A DNA stretch of 64,000 bases from an uncultured Thermoguttaceae bacterium (GCA_937951625.1 CALFBP010000033.1:62001-126000), one strand, 5' to 3'; counted from the first letter of the stretch, positions 25,465 to 57,372 are shown. Notes: generated by a model from the sequence alone, not told the origin. A program made the numbers and translations.

Positions 25465-28164
25465 TCAGGGAAACTCGCGAGCCGACGCCATTGCCCGGCG
25501 CCGGACCAGACCCTCGAAAAATTCCTCCCAGTCCCAAGGTGAGCCCAAGCCTCGGTCCTTGTCAAAGCTCGTTTTGGGAGGATCCGCCAGCCGAAACGAC
25601 CCGCCAACGTTCCCTTCGCGGAATGAGAAACCCCAGGCAGCGCCAAGGGAGTGGCTCTTCTGGGGAGATGGGGTATCGGTGGGGAGGTTGGCCGAAAACC
25701 AAGTCCTGGGGGGCGGCTCCAGGCCGTCGACCGCCTCGTTTCGATGCAAAGGCGGTGCAGAAGCGGTGGCGCGGAGGCCCGAGGGCGACGGGGCTGCCAA
25801 AGCGAATGCGGCGTCCACGGCCCGAGGCGACAACGCTTTGGCGGCAATCGCGACCTGCCCGTCGGAGAAGGCGATTCCACTAACGATCAGCGACCAGGAG
25901 TTCAATCGGCCCGTGTCGTTGGAGTAGCCGTCGTAGACAATCAGCGTCCAGTCGCCCCGGGCGTTCTTGCCGTCGAAGGCGGTCAGCGGCTGTTCGGGCC
26001 GGTAGGAGCCTGAGAACGGCGCGGCGCCTTTGCGGATGGGGATCGAGGCCTCGTCGTTGAGCGTCGTGTTCCTGAAGTGGTCGCCCGATCCGCCGCGGTT
26101 CGACACCAAGCTGATTTGCGTCCCATCCGGACCGAGCAGGTAGATCAACAGATCGGCGTCGTAGGAATGGCTGATGTTCAGCTTGACGTTCACATCAGTC
26201 ACCAGGATGTCGTTGGGAACGTGAAGGGTCGAGCTGGCGGTCTCAAAGTCGCGGATGGGGGCGGGCGTTGCGTTGGTGAAGGTGTACGTGGACGGCTTGG
26301 TCACGCGGAACACGACGCGGTAACCGTCGTCCGACTCGCCCGGCACACCATTGCCGTTCTGATCCATCAGGTTGCCGGACGCGTCGGCCACGTAGGGGCC
26401 GAGATCGAAGCGATAGGTTCCCGCCGCGGTCTGAGCGGCGAAGCTGACGTCGAACTGCGTGTTGTTCGAGCCGGGCACGGCTTTGACTTGCTTGACGGCC
26501 AGTCCACCTTTGGGACCGTTGAACCGAGTAATGTCGGCCGTGGTGAACGTGGCCGGGTTGATCGGCTCGCTGAACGTCACGCGCACGCTGGAAACGGAAG
26601 TCGCGCCGTTGGGCATGGCGCTGACGACATGCGGACCAACCATGTCGAGCTGCAAGTCGCCTAGCGCCTTGGCGGCGTTGAGCCGTCCGCCCGTAGCTAC
26701 TTTGCCAGCGAGCGAGTCCAGCCGGTCCACGCCCGCCTTGATCCGCGCGATGACCTGGCGGTAGGTCAATCGCGGCTGGGCGCTCCAGACCAAGGCCACG
26801 GTCCCGGACACGTGCGGAGCGGCCATGGAGGTGCCGCTGTAGGTCGCGTAGGTTTCGTTGGGCGTGGTGCTGAAAATTCCCATCCCCGGCGCGCCCAAAT
26901 CCACCGAGGCGACTCCATAGTTGGAAAAGCTTGCCAACTGGTCGAAACGATCCGTGGCAGCGACGGCGATCACGTTGTCGTGGCCGAAGCTGGCCGGATA
27001 GAAGGGCTGGGTGTCGTTGTTTCCGGCATTGTTTCCGGCCGCCGCCACAAAAATATGGCCAGCCGACTGGGCGCTGCCGATCGCCCCGGCGAGGGCCGAG
27101 GAATAGCCGCCGCCCCAGCTATTGTTGCTGATCTTCACGCCCTTGCTGAGCGCGTACTGGAGGGCCTCGACCGCACCGCTGGTGTAACCGCTGCCAAAAT
27201 GGTCGAGAAACTTGAGCGGCAAAAGCGACGCCTTCCAAACAACGCCGGCCACACCCAGGCCGTTGTCACCCATCGCCCCGATCGTCCCGGCCACGTGGGT
27301 GCCGTGTCCGTGGTCGTCGATCGGGTCGTTATCGCCATTGATGAAATCCCAGCCGATCAGGTCGTCGATTTTCCCATTGCCGTCGTCGTCGCGGCCATTC
27401 GCCCAGCGGGGATCGTGAAGCACGTCGTATCCGTCGATGCGGCCGTTGGCGTTGGCGTCGAGGACCTTGCCGGCGTTGGCCGGGCTGTTCAGGTCCCAAA
27501 ACGTGTACCAGCCATCGCCGTCGGCATCGACCAGATCGAGACCAACCGGGACCTCTTCTTGATTCAACCAGATGTTTTTATAGAGGTCGGGATGCGTGTA
27601 ATCGATGCCGGTATCGATCACCGCCACAGCGGTGCGGGGGTTGCCCGTCTGAATCTCCCATGCTTCGGGGGCGTCGATGTCGGCGTCGAAACGTCCGCCG
27701 GATTGGCCCGTATTGTGCATGGCCCACAAACTTCCAACCAGCGGATCGTTCGGAACATAGCCGATCGAGACCGGCTGATCGACTTCGACAGATTGCACTT
27801 GCGGGTCGGCTCGCCAAGCGGCCAGGGACTCAATCGCCTGCGCCCAGCTTTCCAAACGTAAGGTCCGATATTCGCCCGACCGCAGCGTCAGCAACAGTTG
27901 AGGCGTCAAGGCGGCGTCCAGCAGGACCCGCTCTTCCAGCATCTCCACTCGTAGCGAGATTGATGCCCGCTGCCTCGTCCGGCTTCGCCCGAGCGTTCGG
28001 CCTGAACCGCGGGCCATTCCGATCTCCCTCGCCATGGCAAAACTGCTTCTCGGCTGATCGCGTTGCGCCGCGGAAGACGACCTGGATCGTGATCGACCCG
28101 ACGACGTAACGCCTTGGGGAACGCGAGGTGGGGCCGTTTGCGTGACGCCCCCGCCCCTAATCAT
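25465..28164 (-). CDS. Secreted subtilisin-like serine protease (S8) with P-domain
   Basis: 899 residues from the ATG at 28164; an ATG at 28035 (MAREIGMARG) is an alternative that would put the LEPR-XLL-like segment SLRVEMLEERVLLDA about 33 residues in, as usual for planctomycete exported proteins. The catalytic triad is Asp in AVIDTGIDYTHPD (about 183), His in DHGHGTHVAGT (about 285) and Ser in SGTSMAAPHVSG (about 443). Between Asp and His there is an insert with two acidic calcium-type loops (DADGDGWYTFWD, DANANGRIDGYD). Then come a Big-type domain and a proprotein-convertase P-domain (about 620-745). The last 130 residues are low complexity. Probably an extracellular or surface protease. 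Confidence 0.93.
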   Translation of the reverse strand: MIRGGGVTQTAPPRVPQGVTSSGRSRSRSSSAAQRDQPRSSFAMAREIGMARGSGRTLGRSRTRQRASISLRVEMLEERVLLDAALTPQLLLTLRSGEYRTLRLESWAQAIESLAAWRADPQVQSVEVDQPVSIGYVPNDPLVGSLWAMHNTGQSGGRFDADIDAPEAWEIQTGNPRTAVAVIDTGIDYTHPDLYKNIWLNQEEVPVGLDLVDADGDGWYTFWDLNSPANAGKVLDANANGRIDGYDVLHDPRWANGRDDDGNGKIDDLIGWDFINGDNDPIDDHGHGTHVAGTIGAMGDNGLGVAGVVWKASLLPLKFLDHFGSGYTSGAVEALQYALSKGVKISNNSWGGGYSSALAGAIGSAQSAGHIFVAAAGNNAGNNDTQPFYPASFGHDNVIAVAATDRFDQLASFSNYGVASVDLGAPGMGIFSTTPNETYATYSGTSMAAPHVSGTVALVWSAQPRLTYRQVIARIKAGVDRLDSLAGKVATGGRLNAAKALGDLQLDMVGPHVVSAMPNGATSVSSVRVTFSEPINPATFTTADITRFNGPKGGLAVKQVKAVPGSNNTQFDVSFAAQTAAGTYRFDLGPYVADASGNLMDQNGNGVPGESDDGYRVVFRVTKPSTYTFTNATPAPIRDFETASSTLHVPNDILVTDVNVKLNISHSYDADLLIYLLGPDGTQISLVSNRGGSGDHFRNTTLNDEASIPIRKGAAPFSGSYRPEQPLTAFDGKNARGDWTLIVYDGYSNDTGRLNSWSLIVSGIAFSDGQVAIAAKALSPRAVDAAFALAAPSPSGLRATASAPPLHRNEAVDGLEPPPRTWFSANLPTDTPSPQKSHSLGAAWGFSFREGNVGGSFRLADPPKTSFDKDRGLGSPWDWEEFFEGLVRRRAMASAREFP

Positions 28165-28371: not shown

Positions 28372-31300
28372 TCATCCGTTCGTGGGAGTGGTTTTTTCGG
28401 ACGACTCCAGGGGATACGGCCCACCGCTTGGCGATGGTAATCGCATCCCCCGAAGGCGGCCTTGGACCCAATCGAGCCAAGCCTCGCTCGGGGGGCCGTA
28501 AGGGCGAAATTTCTGGGACAGTCCCTCGCCACGGTCGTCGAAAATCGCCCGCCATACCCCCAATTGACTCGCCGCCGGCGAGTCGATCAGGCTGCTCGAA
28601 TCGCCCGCGTTCATCCGGAACAGCACGCGCAAGTCGATGTCATCCAAGGCTTGGCGGTCGAGTGTGCGGGAAGCGCTATTGTAGCTGTCGGCCCAAAGCA
28701 GGGCGTGAATGCCCAAGGCCGGACCTTCGCGGAGGATCCTGCGGAACTCCCGGCCGGGATCGGGCGGGGCTTGCTCATCGTAGCGCGCGAAGCCGTAATC
28801 GTCCTCGCGCTTCCGGAGGTCTCGAAAGCGACTGAGGTCGTAAACGATCAAGTAGATCGGCGGGGCGAATTCCTCGTTGGTCTGCTCGCGGCGGGACAAT
28901 TCCGCGGCGATTTCATGGATAACATGGTTCGCCTCGCGCGGAGCAGCGATGCGGACGGTGTGCGGCACCACGGCGGCGAGTCGGGTCCAGAGACCGCGGT
29001 GGGCGGAATCGGGTTTCGTGCCGTCGAGTACATAGAACCTCGCGCCGGGTTCTCCCTCTGCGGGAAAGGGGGCGTACTGGGTCGCCAGCGCGATGATCGC
29101 GGCGGCGAGAATGCCCAAGGCCGTCTCCTCGTGGTGGCCGACAATCAAGAGGTTGGCCCCACCCTGTCGTGCGAACACCGCCGCGGTCGGCTCGCGGATG
29201 GCCACCGGCGAACCCAGCCACGCCTTGGCCGACAAACGCGGCGTGTGCCAGGCAGGGGACGCGATCAGCTCGGCTAGGGCCAGGTTTTCGGCCAGGTTCG
29301 CCGGCTGATTGCCCTCGAACACGATCGCCGGAGGAGCCCGATAATTTCGTTGTTCCGCCCAAGCGCGGAGCCGGTTCAGGTATTCCTCACGCTGGCGATC
29401 CGGGAGCCAGACGACCTGGAACGGATGGTTGCCTTCGTACAAGCCGTTGGCGTCGTTATAGATGGCCTCGCCAGGTCGGCTGAGGAGCCGGGCCGCCGTG
29501 TTCTCCTCGCTGAGGATCAGGTGGGCATCGGCTTCGCTGCACTGCAAGGCGATGCGCACGGCCATTTGCCCAATGGTGGCCCGGGGAATGGAATACGCCC
29601 CAGCCAGCGTCTGCGAACCCAACAGGACGTGGATTCCAAAGGCCCGGCCTTGGCGCACGAGGCGGTCCAACAAAAGTTGCGCGTTTTGCGCGATGCGGTC
29701 GTCCTCGACGAACAGTTCTTGGAACTCGTCGACGACCAGCAGGATGCGAGGCATTCGGGCATTCGGCTCGGCGGCACGATAGGCCGGCAAATCCTGCACT
29801 CCGCGCTCGCGGAACAGATCGCCGCGGCGGCGGAGTTCCTCGTCGAGACGTTCCAACACGCTGAGGCCGAACTCGCGCTCGCTTTCGATGGCGATGATCT
29901 TGGCGTGGGGCAGCTTGGCCTCGGCGTAGGCCTTGAATTCGACCCCTTTCTTGAAGTCCACGAGATAGAGTTCGAGTTCGTCCGGGCTGTAGCGGAGGGC
30001 GAGGTTCATGACCAATACGTGCAGCAACGTCGATTTGCCAGAGCCTGTCTTGCCAGCAACCAAGACGTGCTGGGCAGTGCCTTTGCCGAGCTGAAGCGAC
30101 TGGAACTTGGTGACGCCGGCCCGGCCCAAGGGGGCCTCGATACCGCGGCGGCTTTCGGCGGTCCACCACTGGTCGGGCGGCGGGGCGACCCAGTCGAAAG
30201 GCAATTCCACGCGGCCCGCCTCACGCGATTCGGAGCCTACCCGGCGGACAATTTCGGTGAGTCTTTCGGTGGAGGGGGGCTGTTCCAAAACCAGGGGAAT
30301 GTCCTTGAAATCCGCGTCATCCCACACGAATCGGCCGTCCTCCCAACAGAGGCGGATGGCTTGGCGCTCCAAGTCGGCCAGTTGGAAGTTGTGGGGCAAA
30401 GGCAAGGCGACGTCTCGGGACAAGAGGGTATAGACGCCGCAACGGGCCCCGCTGGAAACGATGCTCAACAGCCGCCGGGCGGCCGTCTCGGTAAACCCCG
30501 CCGGAAAATTGGCGACCACGAGCACGCGGTAGGGCTCAGCCAGCTCGCCCGCCGACGCATTGTACTCTTGAAGCGCAGCGAACTCGTTCCGCAGGTACAC
30601 CTGAATGATGTTTTCCATGTGCTCGGTCAGTTCGCCGAGGCGGCGTTCGATGTGCCCGCTCTCCGTCCAAATCCGGTTCGATACGAGCTGCTCGTTGAAG
30701 TCGGCCAGGTGCATGAAGGCCGAGAAGTTTTCCCCCAACCCCACCGGGTCGATGATCAGGAAGCGGACTTTCCCGGGCGGCAAGGAGGTTAGCATCCGCA
30801 GCATGATCGCCCGGATGTTCTCGATGGCCTTGTCTCGGCCTTCGTCCCGCGCCTTCCACACGATCAGCCCCTGATCTCGGAAGGCCAAATAAGCAGGCAA
30901 GTGGAAGCGGCTATGCGGCGGCACGAGGCGAGGATCGCGAGGCATCCCGCCCTCGAAACGCTCAAGAGCCAGCTCCAATTGCCCGAACGGAACCACGGGC
31001 GGCAAAACGGTCGGCGGGGCCCAATCCGCGCCGGTCCATGCGTTCCAGTCGGGGAAGACCTGCCGGCAAAAGGCAGCGATCCGCTCCACTTGGTCATGAA
31101 ACGCTTCGATGCCGGTCCGCCAGCCCTCGGCCATTGTCTCCCAAGCCTGTTGGAAGCGGGCGTCCCATTCGTTCACCGTCTGGACGTAGCCCCGCTGGAG
31201 CCTAGCCAACTCGGCGGCATAGCGCTCCTCGAGTTCCTGGAGGCATTGGGTATAGCGCTCTTCCAAGACGCGGCGTTCGCTGTTGTGGCGCGAGGCGATG

Positions 31301-32208
31301 GCGGAGCGGGCAGCCACGAAGGCTTGTTCGGCCTCCTTTTGAGCCTGCTGCCTGTCGGTTTTCAATCGCGAGGAAACGCTGGAGAACTCCTCGGCCGCCC
31401 GATTCATTTCCGTTCTCAGTTCTGCGGCCATCTTCGTGCTTTGCCGCTGGGCGTCCGCGTGGACGGCTTCCCAAGCGGTCTGCCACCAATGTGCGGCCTC
31501 GGCCAGGGTCTGGCACAAAGCGGCGGGGGCGGGATCGGGCGGCACGGCTTGGCCGCGGCGCAATCGGGCTGACAGGGTCTTGAACACCCCCGGACCCTTG
31601 CGCGCAAGCAATGCCTGCAACTGCTTCCGGGCCGAGGCAATCGCGTTGGCGCAGCGTTGGGCGGGATCGGGATCCGACCATGGACTCGCCCGTGGCTCCT
31701 CCTTCAAACCCTCGACCAGTCCCCACTCCCGAAGCACTGGCTCCGCCTCCAGACGCACCGCTTGCAATTGGCGCTCTAGCTCGCGCAACTGCGTCTGGGC
31801 CTCCTTGAGCCGGGCGGCCAAGGCCTTCTCGGCCGCCTCGAACACGGCCGAGGCCTGCCACTGCGCATCCTGCATCCGCCGTCGCGCCTCGGACTCGGCT
31901 TCCTCGCATTGCGCGGCGATCGCCGCGCACGCCGCGTCGTACTGCTCTTTGGCTTCGCTTTGGTCCGATTGGAACTGGGCGATGATCTCGCTTCGCAGCT
32001 CAAGATAATCCGATTCCGTTTGGGCCCGGTCGCGCTCATAGCGGGCAGTGGACTCCTTTTGGGCCTCTTCGTACTGTTTTTGCGCGGCCAGTTTTCGGGC
32101 AGAAAAGTCGGCGGCCAGCGAGGTCTCGGCGCGACGCCGTTCGGACACCAAGGTGCGGAGCTTGGATACCAATTCCCGAAGCCGTTGGGCCCCAAGCGTT
32201 TCCGTCAT
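28372..32208 (-). CDS. FtsK/SpoIIIE-family (EssC-like) ATPase of a type VII-like module
   Basis: 1278 residues from the ATG at 32208, which forms an ATGA overlap with the preceding gene. Residues 1-400 are mostly heptad-rich coiled coil (Glu, Arg, Gln, Ala) instead of the FHA and membrane segments of EssC. Around 440-520 lies a degenerate ATPase domain (no Walker A; KVRFLIIDPVGLGENFSAFM). The central domain is intact: Walker A VAGKTGSGKSTLLHVLV near 719, LVDFKKGVEF, and Walker B ILLVVDEFQEL near 823, with the sensor stretch HVLLGSQTL. A third domain near 1025 has GHHEETALG in place of Walker A. Three tandem FtsK-type domains are the layout of type VII secretion motors. No transmembrane helix is visible, so it may be a soluble or peripheral motor. 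Confidence 0.88.
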   Translation of the reverse strand: MTETLGAQRLRELVSKLRTLVSERRRAETSLAADFSARKLAAQKQYEEAQKESTARYERDRAQTESDYLELRSEIIAQFQSDQSEAKEQYDAACAAIAAQCEEAESEARRRMQDAQWQASAVFEAAEKALAARLKEAQTQLRELERQLQAVRLEAEPVLREWGLVEGLKEEPRASPWSDPDPAQRCANAIASARKQLQALLARKGPGVFKTLSARLRRGQAVPPDPAPAALCQTLAEAAHWWQTAWEAVHADAQRQSTKMAAELRTEMNRAAEEFSSVSSRLKTDRQQAQKEAEQAFVAARSAIASRHNSERRVLEERYTQCLQELEERYAAELARLQRGYVQTVNEWDARFQQAWETMAEGWRTGIEAFHDQVERIAAFCRQVFPDWNAWTGADWAPPTVLPPVVPFGQLELALERFEGGMPRDPRLVPPHSRFHLPAYLAFRDQGLIVWKARDEGRDKAIENIRAIMLRMLTSLPPGKVRFLIIDPVGLGENFSAFMHLADFNEQLVSNRIWTESGHIERRLGELTEHMENIIQVYLRNEFAALQEYNASAGELAEPYRVLVVANFPAGFTETAARRLLSIVSSGARCGVYTLLSRDVALPLPHNFQLADLERQAIRLCWEDGRFVWDDADFKDIPLVLEQPPSTERLTEIVRRVGSESREAGRVELPFDWVAPPPDQWWTAESRRGIEAPLGRAGVTKFQSLQLGKGTAQHVLVAGKTGSGKSTLLHVLVMNLALRYSPDELELYLVDFKKGVEFKAYAEAKLPHAKIIAIESEREFGLSVLERLDEELRRRGDLFRERGVQDLPAYRAAEPNARMPRILLVVDEFQELFVEDDRIAQNAQLLLDRLVRQGRAFGIHVLLGSQTLAGAYSIPRATIGQMAVRIALQCSEADAHLILSEENTAARLLSRPGEAIYNDANGLYEGNHPFQVVWLPDRQREEYLNRLRAWAEQRNYRAPPAIVFEGNQPANLAENLALAELIASPAWHTPRLSAKAWLGSPVAIREPTAAVFARQGGANLLIVGHHEETALGILAAAIIALATQYAPFPAEGEPGARFYVLDGTKPDSAHRGLWTRLAAVVPHTVRIAAPREANHVIHEIAAELSRREQTNEEFAPPIYLIVYDLSRFRDLRKREDDYGFARYDEQAPPDPGREFRRILREGPALGIHALLWADSYNSASRTLDRQALDDIDLRVLFRMNAGDSSSLIDSPAASQLGVWRAIFDDRGEGLSQKFRPYGPPSEAWLDWVQGRLRGMRLPSPSGGPYPLESSEKTTPTNG

Positions 32209-32429
32209 TCGCCGCACTCCCGCTCCGCTTTGGAAAGCGCCTCGGTCAAGTGGCGGATCGCGTCCAGCGCCCGCTTGACCTTGGAATCCAGCGGGGCCAG
32301 GAACTCTTTATCGAAGCTGCGGCTCATGGGATCGTCCCAGCGCTCGGCCGCCTCGGCCCTGGCCCGATTCAGGGCCGCGAACGCCATTTCCAATCTGGCG
32401 GCCGCCGAAGCAGGATCGACACCTCGCAT
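32205..32429 (-). CDS. Small WXG-like helical protein (second of two)
   Basis: 74 residues, all predicted helical, with the turn segment RWDDPMSRSFDKEFLAPL in the middle. The pattern W-x-D-x3-R-x-F-x2-E-F is spaced identically to the one in the 90-residue WXG100-like protein at 33071. Short helical hairpins with a Trp turn and downstream Phe are the hallmark of type VII substrates and chaperone partners. Its TGA overlaps the ATPase start (ATGA), implying translational coupling. It could be an antiparallel-dimer partner or a substrate adaptor. The assignment rests on motif and context; overall similarity is low. Confidence 0.68.
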   Translation of the reverse strand: MRGVDPASAAARLEMAFAALNRARAEAAERWDDPMSRSFDKEFLAPLDSKVKRALDAIRHLTEALSKAERECGE

Positions 32430-32525
32430 GAATGGTTCCCCTGGGATGTGGGATTACCCTTCGCCCGAAAATGCCTGCCGAAAACCCTCGCAAAAAGTTC
32501 CTTCCCAACTTTCCGCAGCCTGCGA

Positions 32526-33065
32526 TCAATTCCCTTGCCCACTGGAGTGAGTTTCCCCCGAAGCTGCCGCCGCACCGCCCGGCGGCGCGAGGTCCACATA
32601 CCGTTCCAAGGCCAGGCTCAACTGTCGAAGCATCGCCAGGGCCCGGGGAACGTCGGTCTGGAGCCATTCAGCCAAGGGGGCGATGCCGCTGCGGCAGTCG
32701 TGCGCTTCGCGGTCCAACAGCCGCGACCAGCATCGGACCGCTTCGAGCTTTTCCCTCGCCCGCTCCCCGCGACGCTTCGCCGCCTCCAGGGCCTTCTTTT
32801 CCTCATAGCACGGTGGCTCCCGATCCCCGAAACGAAACATCCGCTTGCGTTCCAGGTTGAGCTTAGCCTCGGCCACCGCCTCCTGGGCCCGGCGCGACTC
32901 CTGGGCCCAAAACTCCTTCTGATCGTACTGCACCCATTGCGTGGCCCGATGAAGGCTCATGCGCACGTCGTCCAAAGCGATCGACGCCTCTTGAGCGAAG
33001 GCCTGCACCGCTCGCGCCATCTGCTCCACCACGTCGATCGACAGGACATTGGCCGCGCGGCTCAT
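32526..33065 (-). CDS. Coiled-coil protein of the type VII-like operon
   Basis: 179 residues from the ATG at 33065; a GTG at 33074 would overlap the previous stop (GTGA), so the start is uncertain by three codons. The product is helical, with a long charged stretch (RAQEAVAEAKLNLERKR, EKKALEAAKRRGERAREKLE) around 60-110 and a C-terminal Gly/Ala-rich tail. No signal peptide or membrane helix. I do not recognise the family. Its length and helicity fit longer ESX-associated proteins (LXG or EspB-like helical bundles), but no diagnostic motif is present. The gap to the 74-residue gene is about 96 bases. Confidence 0.72.
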   Translation of the reverse strand: MSRAANVLSIDVVEQMARAVQAFAQEASIALDDVRMSLHRATQWVQYDQKEFWAQESRRAQEAVAEAKLNLERKRMFRFGDREPPCYEEKKALEAAKRRGERAREKLEAVRCWSRLLDREAHDCRSGIAPLAEWLQTDVPRALAMLRQLSLALERYVDLAPPGGAAAASGETHSSGQGN

Positions 33066-33070
33066 GCGCC

Positions 33071-33343
33071 TCACCTTTGCTGCAAGTAGCGTTCAATGGC
33101 GTCGGCCTTGCGGAGCAGGAAGGGGATGTGCTGCTCGGTCACCTCGATCAGATGCGCAATGGCCCGCATCTGCTGCTCGAAGTCCTCGACAAACCGCTTG
33201 TTCTCCTGGTCGCGCCATGTCTTGCCCAAGGCGACCAATTGCCCATTCATGGCCGTGATCCGGTCGCGGACCTCGGTGTTGAACTTTCGCAGACCGGCGG
33301 CGAAGCGGCGCAAGTCCTCGGGATCGACGATGGCTTGGGGCAT
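33071..33343 (-). CDS. WXG100-like protein
   Basis: 90 residues from the ATG at 33343, preceded by the strong site GGGAGGT. Two predicted helices are joined at GKTWRDQENKRFVEDFEQQM: Trp, then Asp at +2, Lys at +6, Phe at +8, Asp at +11 and Phe at +12. Length about 90-100, helix-turn-helix hairpin, a turn Trp and a C-terminal helix with FLLRKADAIERYL are typical of ESAT-6/WXG100 secretion targets; the Gly of WxG is Asp here, a substitution seen in many distant members. First gene of a four-gene operon leading to the FtsK-like ATPase. Confidence 0.78.
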   Translation of the reverse strand: MPQAIVDPEDLRRFAAGLRKFNTEVRDRITAMNGQLVALGKTWRDQENKRFVEDFEQQMRAIAHLIEVTEQHIPFLLRKADAIERYLQQR

Positions 33344-33620: not shown

Positions 33621-36563
33621 CTATGGGGTCAGCATGTCGGCCAAATTGCGGCGGAGCTGGCGAAGGGCGGCTTCCTGTTCCGGGCTGAAGTGGCCTTGGA
33701 GCTGGCCATAGGTGTCCATCCAGAGGGCGAGCCGTTCCCAAGCCTCCGCCGGGAGTTTCACGTCGTAGTGCCCGGCCTTGAGTAGCTTGAGCAGCGGGCT
33801 TTGGTGCGATGCACCAGCGCCCGGGATGGAACGGCTTTCCAGGTAGCGGGCCTTGACGTGCTGGCGGAGGCTCGGATTGCCATAGTCCAGCAGCGCGGCA
33901 TAGGATTTTCCGGCCGTGAGGTCGAACTTGGGATCCTTCCCGCCCGGCTTGTGGCAGCCCACGCAATGGGTCTCCAGCACCGGTTGGACCAACGCGCTGT
34001 AGTCCAAAGGCCAGGAACCCTCGGGGCCTAACTTGATCTTGGAGGGTTCGCGCCCCAAGGCCGATACCGAAAGGTTGGCGGGCGAACTCGTGCGTGCCTC
34101 ATGGCAGCCGACGCAGGTATAGGTCTGGCCCGGCTGCACGTAGGCGGCGCTGCGCATGGTCTGCACGGCCATCCCCTCGGCGTCCAGGGCTTGGAAAAAC
34201 ACCGACACGCCCGAGGGAACGCGGAAAAACGCCGACCCATCCTCCTCGACCGGCACGGTCCCGATCACGAACTTGCCGGGATCGTCGGCTGTCACGCCGA
34301 TGGCCGGATAATTCATGGTGGGGTGCGTCTTCACCGGCACCCCCACCAGCCGCAGCCGCTTGATTGCACCTCGTTCCACGGATTCCAGACCGTCGTACAC
34401 GTTCAGCAGCAGCATCCGCCCCTCTTGGGCTCCATCCCATGCGACTTGCGAGGCAACAACCGGGGGCCGGGGCCGAGCGCGCACAGGGATCGGCGACGTG
34501 CTAGAAATCTCCGGATCGCGATAAAGCAAATTCAAATTCCCGAAAGCATCGAACAAATAGATGCCCGTGGCGTTGACCGGCTCAGGCGGGCCAGGCCAGC
34601 CAATCATCTCCAAGTCGCTCCACGCCACCAGGTAGTGGTTCTCCGAAAGCGGCCAGGGGCTGACGAAGTAACTCTTCGGCCATCCCTCGGTCTCGGGGAA
34701 GCAGACCTCGGGCGTGAGCCGGGTCATGGCCGCGGGATTGTCGGCGCCCAGCTTATAGTCCAATAGCACCAGACTGCCCCCCGTATTGGCGTGATGGCCA
34801 GAGGCAGTGAAGATCAGTTTCCGCGAATTGGGAATCGCCCGGGCCTCGAAAATGCAGTGCGGGTTTTCGCTGTAGTTGCCGTAAACGGCCTGAGCGTTCG
34901 TGCCGTCGGGCATCGTCGACCAAAGCTTCATGAAGGGCATGTTCCAACGGTCCACGTAATCCCATCGGGCGTAAAGAATCCGCCCCTCGTGATCCACGCT
35001 GGGGGTCCACTCGAACATCTCGAACGCCGAAATGGGCCGCAGATTGCCGCCGTCGCCGTCCATGACGTGCAGGGTATAGACGGCCACCGGCCGTTCCGGA
35101 CCGCCGCCGCAACGCACATAGCAATCGGGATTCGCCCCGTCGAGGCTCGCCGCCGCCGTGGCCTTGCTGGTTTGCACGAACTGCCCTCGCCGCGTGGAAA
35201 GAAACACGATCTCGCCGTTGGGCAGATACCGCGCGTCGACATTGTCGTACTTGCCCCGCGTCAGGCGGCGCAGGCCGCTGCCATCGAGATTCATCTCGTA
35301 AATGTGGTAGAAAGCGTCCTCGGGCACGCGGTTCTTGTCCAGCTTGTTGGGCTCGTCGCGCAGACCGGGATAGAACTTGCAGTGCGAGAAGAGGACCTTC
35401 TTGCCATCGTAGGAAATGTCAGGACTGAGCACACTGCCCAAGGGAAGCGACTCGGTCAGGCACCGCAGCGTGGGGTGATCCGACTTGAAATCCTTGAGCA
35501 CGAACAGCCCCCCGCCAGGCCGCGAAAACCAACCATAGTTCTGGTCCGACATGTGGGTGAACGTGCCCGGCGCCCGCTTGACGAACAGCAAATCGTCGAA
35601 ATCCAACAGCGGATTGGCCAGGGCCATGCGGCGAATGGCCCATTGGGCCTGGAGGTAAAGCTGGCGATAATCGTGGTTGCTTCTCTCGGCGCGTTCCGTG
35701 CTGGCCCGCTCCGCTTGCGGCTGCGAAACAGGAGCCCCCACCGCCGACGCCACGCGATCGAGGACGGCCACCTCAGCATCGACCTTCGCGCCCAACTTGC
35801 GAAGGTCATCGGCCAGCTTTCGACCCTGTTCGATTGTCGCTTTTAAACGCTCGGCAGATACCACCGGTCTTGCGGTCTCGGCATTCGCCGCAGTCGATGC
35901 GGGTTGCGACGCCGGGATCTTGGCCGTGGACCACTGGCTGACACTGGACTGGTCGGCTGGTTTGTTCAGGGCCACGTTGTCGCTGGAATTAACGCCGTAA
36001 ACTTCGACCTCGTCCAAGTGCAAATACCCAGGATGGGGCAGTTGGATGCGCACGAAGCGGGCCTGTTTGCCCCCGCCGGGAACCACCAGGGGCTTGTTGT
36101 CGGCAAAGCCCAGGAATTTCGTGCCGTCGTGCTGGTAAAGCTGGGTCCACGACTGCGCATCGTTGCTGAGGAGGACTTGCAGCCGCGAAGCCCGGTCTTC
36201 GACGTTGCCGTCGCCGCGGTTGTAGATCACGACCCGATCCAGGGCCACCGGCTGGCCCAGATCAACTTGCCACCAGGGCTTGGGGTCGCTGCTCGTATGG
36301 AACCCGAAGGTGCCATTCTTCACGCCGTCCACCCCGCCCGCGGCGTCCTGCGACGGCGCAATCCCTAACGTCGGCCGATGCCGCGGCGAGGGAGGAAGCC
36401 ACCGCACTTCCTCCTGCCGAAGCCAATCGGCCTCGATTTGCCGAGGCGTTCGGACCGGCTCGGCCGCGGCCCTTCCGCTACTAGGATTCCCCACCAAAAG
36501 CCCCAAGACCGCGATCATTCCCACGGCCGTTGCGATCCCAGACTCTGAACGAGCGTTTCGCAT
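33621..36563 (-). CDS. HzsA-like secreted protein: discoidin domain, beta-propeller, two c-heme motifs
   Basis: 980 residues with a good GGGAGACGGAAG site. Signal peptide 1-33. Residues 45-195 form an F5/8-type C (discoidin) domain (KPWWQVDLGQPVALDRVVIYNR, LHLDEVEVYG). Then a helical spacer and a PD40-like beta-propeller (SPDISYDGKKVLFSHCKF, NLDGSGLRRLTRGKYDNVDA). The C-terminal part has two heme-attachment motifs, TCVGCHE near 815 and HCVGCHK near 868. The order propeller plus cytochrome c resembles the alpha subunit of anammox hydrazine synthase, and many non-anammox planctomycetes carry such HzsA-related paralogues. No HzsB/HzsC genes are here, so hydrazine synthesis is unlikely; the role is unknown but periplasmic. 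Confidence 0.85.
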   Translation of the reverse strand: MRNARSESGIATAVGMIAVLGLLVGNPSSGRAAAEPVRTPRQIEADWLRQEEVRWLPPSPRHRPTLGIAPSQDAAGGVDGVKNGTFGFHTSSDPKPWWQVDLGQPVALDRVVIYNRGDGNVEDRASRLQVLLSNDAQSWTQLYQHDGTKFLGFADNKPLVVPGGGKQARFVRIQLPHPGYLHLDEVEVYGVNSSDNVALNKPADQSSVSQWSTAKIPASQPASTAANAETARPVVSAERLKATIEQGRKLADDLRKLGAKVDAEVAVLDRVASAVGAPVSQPQAERASTERAERSNHDYRQLYLQAQWAIRRMALANPLLDFDDLLFVKRAPGTFTHMSDQNYGWFSRPGGGLFVLKDFKSDHPTLRCLTESLPLGSVLSPDISYDGKKVLFSHCKFYPGLRDEPNKLDKNRVPEDAFYHIYEMNLDGSGLRRLTRGKYDNVDARYLPNGEIVFLSTRRGQFVQTSKATAAASLDGANPDCYVRCGGGPERPVAVYTLHVMDGDGGNLRPISAFEMFEWTPSVDHEGRILYARWDYVDRWNMPFMKLWSTMPDGTNAQAVYGNYSENPHCIFEARAIPNSRKLIFTASGHHANTGGSLVLLDYKLGADNPAAMTRLTPEVCFPETEGWPKSYFVSPWPLSENHYLVAWSDLEMIGWPGPPEPVNATGIYLFDAFGNLNLLYRDPEISSTSPIPVRARPRPPVVASQVAWDGAQEGRMLLLNVYDGLESVERGAIKRLRLVGVPVKTHPTMNYPAIGVTADDPGKFVIGTVPVEEDGSAFFRVPSGVSVFFQALDAEGMAVQTMRSAAYVQPGQTYTCVGCHEARTSSPANLSVSALGREPSKIKLGPEGSWPLDYSALVQPVLETHCVGCHKPGGKDPKFDLTAGKSYAALLDYGNPSLRQHVKARYLESRSIPGAGASHQSPLLKLLKAGHYDVKLPAEAWERLALWMDTYGQLQGHFSPEQEAALRQLRRNLADMLTP

Positions 36564-55113: not shown

Positions 55114-57372
55114 TCACGCCGGGTTCTGCCCGGCCAAGGCAGCCTCGTCCGAGTCGCCCCACCAGAGGTGGCGAAGCAACCCGTGCAAGCGAACCCCGCC
55201 GCCCAGCAGCAGGACACGTTGAACGCGCCGTCCCGGATGGGCCTCTTCGAAAACGTCCAGTCCGGTCTTCAGTTCGTTGACGAGGTCTTGAATCATAAGA
55301 CGGGTGACCTCGGCCAGGCGGGCGGTATTGTCTCCCGCCCCGGGATTGCGCTTCCATTGTTCGGCGCGGGCGAACGTCATGTGGAATTCGCGGACCAAGG
55401 TTTTGGTCACACGGTCGATGCCCAAGCCGCCCGAGCGAAGCCATGCCAAGTCCCCGGCGCTTACCAGAAGGTTCGTGGCGTCAGCGCCGATGTCGAACAG
55501 CGCGATGGGCGGCTCGGCGGGGGCCTCCTCGGCTACCAAGTCGGATCGGGTGGGAAAATAGTTGAACACGGCGAAATTGTGGATCGCCAGCCAATCTGCT
55601 TGAACCACATCGACCCGCACCCCAAGCTTTCGTAGGGTTTCCAACCAATCTTCCAGCACCACGTGCTTGATGCCCAGCACCGCGACTTTCAGCCAAGTCG
55701 TGTGGTCTGCGGACCGTTCGATCTGTTCCAAGATCGCATAGCGCCACTCCAGCTCCCGCAAGGGAATGGGCAGCAGCAGGGTCGCCTCGTTCGCCACGGC
55801 GGTGTCGAGCATCTCGGGATCCATGTCGGGCAATTCGAACTGGCGGACCACGACGCTTCGCGGCGGCAAGGTCACGCAGACCCGGTCGGCGGTGGGATTT
55901 CGGGAAGCCCAGGTCTTGACGGCTTCTTCCAACAACATCCGCAACTGGCTGTCGCTGGCCGCTTGACTGAGAATCTTGTCGTATTCGACGAAATCGCAAT
56001 CGGTGACGATCGGATCGCCGCCCGACAGAGCCAGCCGAACCGCCTTCAGACCGCTCGAGCCGAGGTCGAGGCCCCAAGCGCTGCGGGCCGGGCGGCGGGA
56101 AAGCCAACGCGTGGCCTTGCCCCAGAGACTCTCGTCTTCCGGAAGCAGGTTCACGTCGCTCGAGGTCTCCACGAGTCCCTGCAAGGCCACGCCGCACGCG
56201 GCCGCGAAGCGACCCGGATGGTCCAACGCCACCGTGCTTTGAAAATCTGGGGCCACCCCTAGCCTTCCAAATCCCGTCAGCCATTCCACCGGACGACCGA
56301 GAACCGAGCCCTTGCGGGGCTTCAGCAATAAAAAGGGCTGCTCCAAGGTTCGAGCGTGGTTTTGGAAACGTTGTTCCAATTCCGCGCACACGGTTGCCAT
56401 CTCGCGATCCTGCGGCGCCAGTTTGCGGAATCGCGCCGCCAACGACACCACGCTATCGTTGACTAAAGGCGTTTCACGAAGCTCCCGAGTCAAATAGGCC
56501 AGTTCCCAGGCACGGTCCCGAATGGCACGCAATTCCTCGGTCTGTAGGCCCTCGGGCACCTGATCCAGCACACGTTTGACTTCCGTGTAGCGGCCTGCCG
56601 CCAGTTTGGTTTGGGCGACCTGGGCCAAGCGGGCGGCAAGGTGCGTGCCCATGCCTCGGGCCTCGCGATGGTCTGGGCAGAGTGTCAGCAGGCGTCCAAT
56701 CTTCCGAATCGCCTCCGCGGAGGGCGGCCCCTTGCCCAACGCCTCCAGCTCGCCTTCCAAGGCGGCGATCTCGCCGAGGGCCGCTTGCACCTCGTCATAG
56801 AGTTGCCCGACGCTCCCCACGCGGAGCGCGACCGGGATGGCCTCCAGGAGGCGTCCCGCCCCACGGTAATCGCGTTTGGCGATGAGTTGCCGGACCTCCT
56901 TTTCGGCGGTGATGGCCCGGGCCCGCCATGCCTCCCGCTCCGCACGGCACATCTCGATCATCCGCGTGGCACGCTTGGCAAACTCGCTGAGGCGCGAATC
57001 TTCGTAGGCGGCGATGGGTTGGAGCATGGCAATGGCCTCGGTGAAGCGGTGAACCTGCATCAGCTTCTCGGCCTTGGCGAGTTCTTTATCCAACGATTCG
57101 AGTCGCTCTTGGACCCACTCCAAAATGTTCGCGCCGCAGGAGCCGCAATACTTGGTGGTCGCCTCGTTAGGGGCCTTGCAGCGGAAACAGGGTTCCCATA
57201 GGCCCAGACCGCATTCCCGGCAAAAACGATTCGAGGCGGGATTGACGGCATTGCACGCCCCGCAGACCACGGTCTGGTTGCCCACCGCCCGTGGTGCCTC
57301 GGATTGCGCACCGTTACCGAGAGGGCGTGCTTTGAGGATCCCGCTGAACTTGGGCGGCGGGGTTGCGGCCAT
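55114..57372 (-). CDS. Zinc-ribbon PilM-like actin fold with a displaced C-terminal segment
   Basis: 752 residues. A double zinc ribbon 37-79 (CGAC, CREC, CFRC, CGSC), a TPR-like helical region 85-330, then a segment at about 360-410 (GRPVEWLTGFGRLGVAPDFQ followed by HPGRFAAACGVALQGL and VNLLPEDE) that in ordinary PilM proteins is the C-terminus. Next comes the PilM start (WGLDLGSSGLKAVRLALSGG) at about 431, the usual body, and the frame stops just after VLLLGGGVRLHGLLRHLWW, where GLPVE...NLLP should follow. So the order of the actin-like domain is permuted. PilM is the cytoplasmic platform protein of type IV pili. It follows its partner at 57385 by 12 bp. Confidence 0.85.
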   Translation of the reverse strand: MAATPPPKFSGILKARPLGNGAQSEAPRAVGNQTVVCGACNAVNPASNRFCRECGLGLWEPCFRCKAPNEATTKYCGSCGANILEWVQERLESLDKELAKAEKLMQVHRFTEAIAMLQPIAAYEDSRLSEFAKRATRMIEMCRAEREAWRARAITAEKEVRQLIAKRDYRGAGRLLEAIPVALRVGSVGQLYDEVQAALGEIAALEGELEALGKGPPSAEAIRKIGRLLTLCPDHREARGMGTHLAARLAQVAQTKLAAGRYTEVKRVLDQVPEGLQTEELRAIRDRAWELAYLTRELRETPLVNDSVVSLAARFRKLAPQDREMATVCAELEQRFQNHARTLEQPFLLLKPRKGSVLGRPVEWLTGFGRLGVAPDFQSTVALDHPGRFAAACGVALQGLVETSSDVNLLPEDESLWGKATRWLSRRPARSAWGLDLGSSGLKAVRLALSGGDPIVTDCDFVEYDKILSQAASDSQLRMLLEEAVKTWASRNPTADRVCVTLPPRSVVVRQFELPDMDPEMLDTAVANEATLLLPIPLRELEWRYAILEQIERSADHTTWLKVAVLGIKHVVLEDWLETLRKLGVRVDVVQADWLAIHNFAVFNYFPTRSDLVAEEAPAEPPIALFDIGADATNLLVSAGDLAWLRSGGLGIDRVTKTLVREFHMTFARAEQWKRNPGAGDNTARLAEVTRLMIQDLVNELKTGLDVFEEAHPGRRVQRVLLLGGGVRLHGLLRHLWWGDSDEAALAGQNPA

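What the first reader, a model, noticed from the sequence alone, without database searches (positions are those of the whole stretch)
28372..33343. Four-gene type VII-like secretion module in a probable diderm planctomycete
A WXG100-like protein, a coiled-coil protein, a second short WXG-like helical protein and an FtsK/SpoIIIE-type ATPase lie head to tail on the minus strand. The 74-aa gene and the ATPase share an ATGA overlap, and the first two genes touch (possible GTGA), so they form one translation-coupled unit. WXG100 systems have been noted outside monoderms, but I see no EccB/EccD/EsaA/EssB-like membrane parts here, which would make this a minimal or divergent form.
Basis: partly seen in the sequence, partly recalled or inferred. 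Interest (0 to 1): 0.82.

Follow-up and report, generated by a model that had tools for sequence, protein, structure and literature searches.

The report
Minimal type VII-like operon in planctomycetes
Four neighbouring genes in this planctomycete form a compact, phylum-wide relative of the type VII protein-export machine, with an EccC/EssC-like motor and two small WXG-type helical proteins, but none of the other known parts; this bacterium's own motor has unusually lost its membrane anchor.

Summary
A (33071-33343, WXG100-like), B (32526-33065, long helical hairpin), C (32205-32429, second WXG-like protein) and D (28372-32208, FtsK/EccC-like ATPase) lie in order on the minus strand. The order recurs across Planctomycetota with changing flanks. 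In 60 related genomes, Pfam WXG100 occurs in the same 33 that carry the full D, nearly always once. A's nearest solved relative is Helicobacter pylori HP0062; D's are EccC and EssC. A and C carry W-x-D, never W-x-G. Only D's middle P-loop domain is intact. No EssB, EccB or LXG relatives were found in 21 carrier genomes (the EccB search lacked a positive control).

New here: planctomycete D proteins have a two-helix membrane hairpin just before the stalk, where EccC has one. The window's D has lost it, although nested among hairpin-bearing relatives. Relatives in other phyla place an EssC-like ATPase and WXG proteins with toxin or stress genes; a Helicobacter plasmid inserts a colicin-type nuclease with a SUKH immunity gene.

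So this is a type VII-like WXG/ATPase module, a new variant of a kind already noted in H. pylori and TerY-P/CoCoNuT loci. Export is inferred, not shown, and doubtful for this TM-less copy.

The parts
33071..33343 (-). Gene A, 90 aa, WXG100-like with W-R-D at the bend; HP0062/EsxB relative
   Evidence: Pfam WXG100 36 bits vs cut-off 27.3; PDB 3FX7 HP0062 E 5e-12 and B. anthracis EsxB E 4e-9 over nearly the full length; W43 and D45 invariant in 34 relatives
32526..33065 (-). Gene B, 179 aa, long two-helix hairpin (helices 6-76 and 87-159), invariant Y156, near-invariant W44 and W53
   Evidence: AlphaFold2 mean pLDDT 91; conserved between A and C in relatives; no Pfam domain
32205..32429 (-). Gene C, 74 aa, second WXG-like protein with invariant W-x-D
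   Evidence: W31 and D33 invariant in 53 sequences; profile matches S. aureus EsxA E 0.007; A-C profile comparison probability 74.7% with W-x-D aligned
28372..32208 (-). Gene D, 1278 aa, EccC/EssC-like ATPase: N-terminal coiled coil, (missing hairpin), stalk helix, degenerate DUF-like domain, intact P-loop domain, degenerate P-loop domain
   Evidence: NCBIfam EccCa 119.7 bits vs FtsK 19.3; Foldseek top hits EccC 4nh0 E 3e-31, EssC 4lya E 1e-21; motifs
30031..30054 (-). Walker A (GKTGSGKS, residues 719-726) of the only intact ATPase domain
   Evidence: invariant in alignment
29722..29745 (-). Walker B region (D827-E828) of the intact ATPase domain
   Evidence: D827/E828 invariant, block shown
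31560..31580 (-). Site (after residue 213) where relatives carry a two-TM hairpin of about 50 aa that the window copy lacks
   Evidence: alignment and hydropathy: hairpin region hydrophobic in all 26 aligned relatives and in all 66 full-length named relatives, weak in one; absent in window

Best explanation
A-B-C-D is a self-contained type VII-like (WXG100/EccC-type) module of Planctomycetota. D most likely forms an EccC/EssC-like hexamer: N-terminal coiled coil, two-TM anchor (in nearly all relatives), stalk, DUF-like domain, one working ATPase domain and one dead one. A and C, both W-x-D proteins, probably form an Esx-like four-helix dimer that docks on D; B is a long helical hairpin that joins this dimer or is the cargo carrier. 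In most planctomycetes ATP hydrolysis by D would drive the A/C(/B) complex across the inner membrane. In the window's organism D has lost the anchor, so it either docks on the membrane another way or works in the cytoplasm. Shown: gene order, homology, domain layout, loss of the hairpin. Inferred: dimer, hexamer, export, cargo role of B.
For: WXG100 homology of A and weaker homology of C. EccC/EssC-type D by profile, PDB sequence search and fold: model residues 113-428 match EccC5 stalk+DUF (7b9f, Z 15.1, 264 aligned, rmsd 5.7) and 429-1007 match EccC ATPases 2+3 (4n1a, Z 25.3, 493 aligned, rmsd 7.1). Two-TM hairpin just before the stalk in relatives, as in EccC. Conserved operon with variable flanks and matching presence of A and D. 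D tree broadly follows taxonomy. In Helicobacter sp. NHP19-012 the gene after the WXG-like protein is a coiled coil fused to a WHH/colicin-type nuclease followed by a SUKH-1 immunity gene, a small gene and D, a toxin/immunity layout that fits export of a B-like cargo. Phycisphaerales-type B proteins carry a C-terminal Imm33-like domain (8 of 10 long B).
Against: No secretion data. No membrane partner found: EssB 0/21, EccB 0/21 (no positive control), YukD 1/21. No LXG and nearly always only one WXG100 protein per genome, so no evident substrates. The T7 signal YxxxD/E is absent from A (0/34). The window's D has no TM hairpin, and homologues in other phyla also lack it. D has three P-loop domains, whereas T7SS ATPases have four (PMC11217815). 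B in the 46-sequence alignment has no recognisable toxin domain.
Confidence: 0.58

Rival explanations
1. The module is not an exporter but an intracellular stress or defence motor: D is a soluble or membrane-tethered EssC-like hexamer that remodels protein or nucleic-acid complexes, with A/C as its adaptor and B as a coiled-coil partner, akin to the CoCoNuT and TerY-P associated loci.
For: EssC-like ATPases with N-terminal coiled coil, only the central domain active and no TM, beside two WXG100-type proteins, are described in Type III-A CoCoNuTs (PMC11090510). Plasmid relatives sit beside TerD (Rhodococcus) or CARF, VWA, PP2C and kinase genes (Caballeronia). The window copy is TM-less. PADLOC SspH matches D's P-loop domain.
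Against: Planctomycete modules have no such neighbours and nearly all D have a TM hairpin placed as in EccC; closest ATPase folds by Foldseek E-value are EccC/EssC, although the single FtsK motor domain ties with EccC by VIA Z. The CoCoNuT authors themselves favour secretion.
Confidence: 0.27
2. The family is an exporter, but the window's copy is a decaying or recently changed version (hairpin lost), or an assembly error removed the hairpin.
For: Only copy lacking the hairpin among all those with that region sequenced; the window nests inside hairpin-bearing Pirellulales relatives.
Against: The deletion is in frame at an alignment boundary; Walker motifs, A, B, C and the ATGA overlap are intact, so the locus is not visibly degraded. 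Only one genome of this lineage is held.
Confidence: 0.12
3. Chance neighbours with no shared function.
For: None beyond the lack of experiments.
Against: Same order across the phylum and matching presence in 33 of 60 genomes.
Confidence: 0.01

Closest known systems
Helicobacter pylori HP0062/HP0066 cluster
   Same: HP0062 is A's best solved relative over the full length, is a dimeric helical hairpin with W-R-D in the bend, and clusters with an FtsK/SpoIIIE gene (PMC3397514); the pair was called a minimal set of T7SS (PMC4978471).
   Different: HP0063-HP0066 could not be read here. In a Helicobacter plasmid relative, the gene after the WXG-like protein is a nuclease with SUKH immunity, and D (823 aa) has no comparable TM hairpin.
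EssC-like ATPase plus two WXG100 proteins of Type III-A CoCoNuT / TerY-P loci (PMC11090510; Anantharaman 2012, cited there)
   Same: N-terminal coiled coil, three ATPase domains with only the middle one active, two WXG-type proteins, coiled-coil neighbour; a stand-alone occurrence was already remarked.
   Different: Planctomycete D carry a TM hairpin (window excepted); B lacks the nuclease; no Ter/VWA/kinase genes; chromosomal and broadly vertical inheritance.
T7SSa-T7SSj (EccC/EssC systems of Actinomycetota and Bacillota)
   Same: WXG100 hairpin partner; EccC-like stalk, DUF and ATPases; two-TM anchor in relatives.
   Different: W-x-D, no YxxxD/E, three instead of four P-loop domains, only one intact, no EssB or other membrane parts found.

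Membership tests
Type VII secretion system (EccC/EssC + WXG100) | FtsK-family ATPase of EccC/EssC type | tested here: met
   EccCa 119.7 bits, EssC 97.4 (below those models' curated cut-offs), FtsK 19.3; PDB sequence and fold hits EccC/EssC first by E-value
Type VII secretion system (EccC/EssC + WXG100) | ATPase anchored by two TM helices before the stalk | tested here: inconclusive
   met in relatives (26 of 26 aligned, 66 of 66 full-length named); not met in the window copy
Type VII secretion system (EccC/EssC + WXG100) | four NTPase domains in the ATPase (PMC11217815) | tested here: not met
   three P-loop domains in the model, one intact
Type VII secretion system (EccC/EssC + WXG100) | WXG100-family hairpin protein in the cluster | tested here: met
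   A above the Pfam cut-off
Type VII secretion system (EccC/EssC + WXG100) | literal W-x-G and YxxxD/E signals | tested here: not met
   W-x-D in all 34 A and all 53 C sequences; YxxxD/E in 0/34 A and 1/53 C
Type VII secretion system (EccC/EssC + WXG100) | EssB/YukC membrane partner | tested here: not met
   0/21 genomes, B. subtilis control positive
Type VII secretion system (EccC/EssC + WXG100) | EccB membrane partner | tested here: inconclusive
   0/21, but no control rang
Type VII secretion system (EccC/EssC + WXG100) | YukD/EsaB-like protein | tested here: not met
   absent from the window genome; 1/21 genomes; control positive
Type VII secretion system (EccC/EssC + WXG100) | ATPase-dependent secretion of the WXG100 protein | not testable with these tools
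   needs proteomics and mutants
CoCoNuT/TerY-P associated EssC-like WXG module | EssC-like ATPase with N-terminal coiled coil and only the central domain active | tested here: met
   description in PMC11090510
CoCoNuT/TerY-P associated EssC-like WXG module | coiled-coil nuclease and VWA/kinase/CARF neighbours | tested here: not met
   B has no nuclease domain; no such genes flank the window's or relatives' modules

The most novel reading that the evidence does not exclude
A distinct, vertically inherited diderm class of type VII-like exporter: four proteins only, a three-domain membrane-anchored EccC-like motor, a W-x-D Esx-like pair and a long-hairpin carrier whose C-terminal module is exchanged between lineages (none, Imm33-like, nuclease), with at least one lineage that has turned the motor soluble.
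Probability: 0.4. Interest if true: 0.82.

Novelty: new variant of a known kind. Interest (0 to 1): 0.6.

Why it matters
Type VII secretion is defined from Actinomycetota and Bacillota (PMC11217815). A four-gene EccC/WXG module across a diderm phylum, including strains with complete genomes such as Limnoglobus roseus and Singulisphaera acidiphila, would give a minimal system for asking which parts are truly needed and whether WXG proteins are cargo or regulators. It also gives orphan HP0062 a wider family. The window's TM-less motor, set beside hairpin-bearing relatives, makes the question 'does this family need the membrane?' directly testable.

Tried and rejected
Viral contigs: no relatives of D or A confirmed. 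The subtilisin-like gene downstream of D (25465-28164) looked like a mycosin, but no S8 motif is found in the next three genes of 74 relatives' loci, so it is taken as an accidental neighbour. B's fold gave only generic coiled-coil matches, Z about 11, near the level expected for long helices. PADLOC hits (SspH, mad8) reflect the shared P-loop domain. Anantharaman 2012 is not held, so it is cited second-hand. Literal searches for planctomycete T7SS papers found nothing relevant. The H. pylori chromosome was not in reach after the single genome-collection scan; a Helicobacter plasmid served instead.

Full report
WHAT IS THERE. On the minus strand, A (33071-33343, 90 aa), B (32526-33065, 179 aa), C (32205-32429, 74 aa) and D (28372-32208, 1278 aa) follow head to tail. 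C and D overlap by ATGA. A and B are 5 nt apart when the conserved ATG of B is used. A passes Pfam's WXG100 cut-off; D's best curated relatives are EccCa and EssC, well ahead of FtsK, though below those models' own cut-offs.

IT IS A CONSERVED MODULE. In 60 relatives, 33 genomes (own included) carry the full-type D and the same 33 carry a Pfam WXG100 protein, nearly always exactly one (G036 has a second, sub-threshold hit). Two further genomes (G008, G009) have a different D-like ATPase without a mid-protein TM hairpin; one of these loci (L041) has a canonical W-T-G protein and a TerB-like gene nearby. The A profile finds 60 of 392 genomes and 48 of 267 genera of the phylum, one copy each save one genome with an extra fragment. 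A-B-C-D order is kept while flanks change. In a family of the same class some genomes keep A-B-C and carry D elsewhere. A genome-collection scan gave 80 named loci, nearly all titled Planctomycetota (Pirellulales, Isosphaeraceae, Gemmataceae, Phycisphaerales and others); 43 show A-B-C directly upstream of D.

THE SMALL PROTEINS. A's nearest solved relatives are H. pylori HP0062 (E 5e-12) and B. anthracis EsxB (E 4e-9) over nearly the whole chain. W43 and D45 are invariant in 34 sequences. C has invariant W31 and D33 in 53 sequences, matches S. aureus EsxA at E 0.007 and aligns with A around W-x-D. B is predicted as two helices of about 70 residues (mean pLDDT 91). YxxxD/E is absent from A.

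THE MOTOR. The model of D residues 236-1278 (mean pLDDT 82) shows a long stalk helix and three P-loop domains. The stalk and first domain match EccC5 stalk and DUF (Z 15.1); the second and third match EccC ATPases 2 and 3 (Z 25.3); single FtsK motor domains tie in Z for the middle domain. Foldseek puts EccC and EssC first by E-value. Only the middle domain has intact Walker A and B.

THE LOST HAIRPIN. All 26 aligned relatives and all 66 full-length named relatives (weak in L237) have a hydrophobic two-helix hairpin between the N-terminal coiled coil and the stalk, the place of EccC's membrane anchor. TM helices were called by Kyte-Doolittle hydropathy only, and in some rows only one helix passes the threshold. 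The window's D lacks about 50 residues there, in frame, after residue 213. In the tree it sits inside a 100/99-supported set of nine Pirellulales-type sequences, the other eight hairpin-bearing, so the loss is secondary or an assembly fault; one genome cannot decide.

OTHER PHYLA. Plasmids carry relatives. Rhodococcus sp. AH-ZY2: D, a B-like protein (21 bits), a C-like protein (W-R-D, weak), A (W-K-D), then TerD genes. Deinococcus actinosclerus: D, A, a second A-like protein, B-like (18.5 bits), C-like (W-N-D). Caballeronia sp. SBC2: A, a 436-aa coiled coil, a 113-aa gene, a 76-aa gene, D, then CARF, VWA, PP2C and kinase genes. Helicobacter sp. NHP19-012: A, a coiled coil fused to a WHH/colicin-type nuclease, a SUKH-1 immunity gene, a 77-aa gene, D. 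B and C assignments outside Planctomycetota are weak, rest partly on position, and the E-values are for a tiny search set; the 76- and 77-aa genes do not match C significantly. In Phycisphaerales-type planctomycetes, B ends in an Imm33-like domain (8 of 10 long B proteins); none of the 46 B proteins of alignment A6, window included, shows any Pfam domain.

WHAT IS ALREADY KNOWN. HP0062 was compared with ESAT-6, with W-R-D and an FtsK neighbour noted (PMC3397514). HP0062/HP0066 and a TerY-P linked pair were called a minimal set of T7SS (PMC4978471). The CoCoNuT paper describes TM-less EssC-like ATPases with N-terminal coiled coil, only D2 active, beside two WXG100-type proteins, and cites a 2012 remark that such operons occur stand-alone (PMC11090510). 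I found no paper on the planctomycete module, but the library is partial.

MECHANISM. Best reading: A and C pair as an Esx-like dimer, D is an EccC-like motor, B a carrier or scaffold; most planctomycetes would export the complex across the inner membrane. The toxin/immunity layout in Helicobacter and the changing C-terminal module of B favour export in a conflict or signalling role. Against this stand the missing membrane partners and substrates, the missing T7 signal, and TM-less motors in the window and other phyla. I put export by the family at about 0.58 and a soluble defence or stress role at about 0.27. No outer-membrane route was identified.

VERDICT. A real, conserved, type VII-like module that fails several defining tests of known T7SS classes, so it is not filed as a member; that it works like one is inference. 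It is a new variant of a known kind.

Noticed in passing
window 25465-28164 (-): Secreted subtilisin-like S8 protease with P-domain and Big_5 domain just downstream of D on the same strand; resembles a mycosin by position only and is not conserved beside D in relatives.
   Followed up: yes
window 33621-36563 (-): Large protein with F5/8 type C and hydrazine synthase alpha middle-domain (HZS_alpha) matches, upstream of A.
   Followed up: partly
L117, L120, L125, L192, L213, L221, L234, L246 (B genes): B proteins of Phycisphaerales-type planctomycetes end in an Imm33-like domain, an immunity-type module.
   Followed up: partly
L255:3253-7655 (Helicobacter sp. NHP19-012 plasmid): WXG-like gene, coiled coil + WHH/colicin-type nuclease, SUKH-1 immunity, small gene and FtsK-like ATPase in a row: a likely toxin/immunity pair inside the module.
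   Followed up: partly
L119, L122, L162, L164 and other genomes of family f21: A-B-C lie together but D is elsewhere in the genome, so the motor can be unlinked.
   Followed up: partly
L040, L041, L042: A second type of D-like ATPase without mid-protein TM hairpin in two relatives; L041 has a canonical W-T-G WXG100-type protein at 853-1113 and a TerB-like gene nearby.
   Followed up: partly
L254 (G041:C1:1770757-1770966): A lone YukD-like (PF08817) protein in one carrier genome; context not examined.
   Followed up: no
window 55114-57372 (-): PilM-like ATPase fused to a double zinc ribbon (type IV pilus-like).
   Followed up: no
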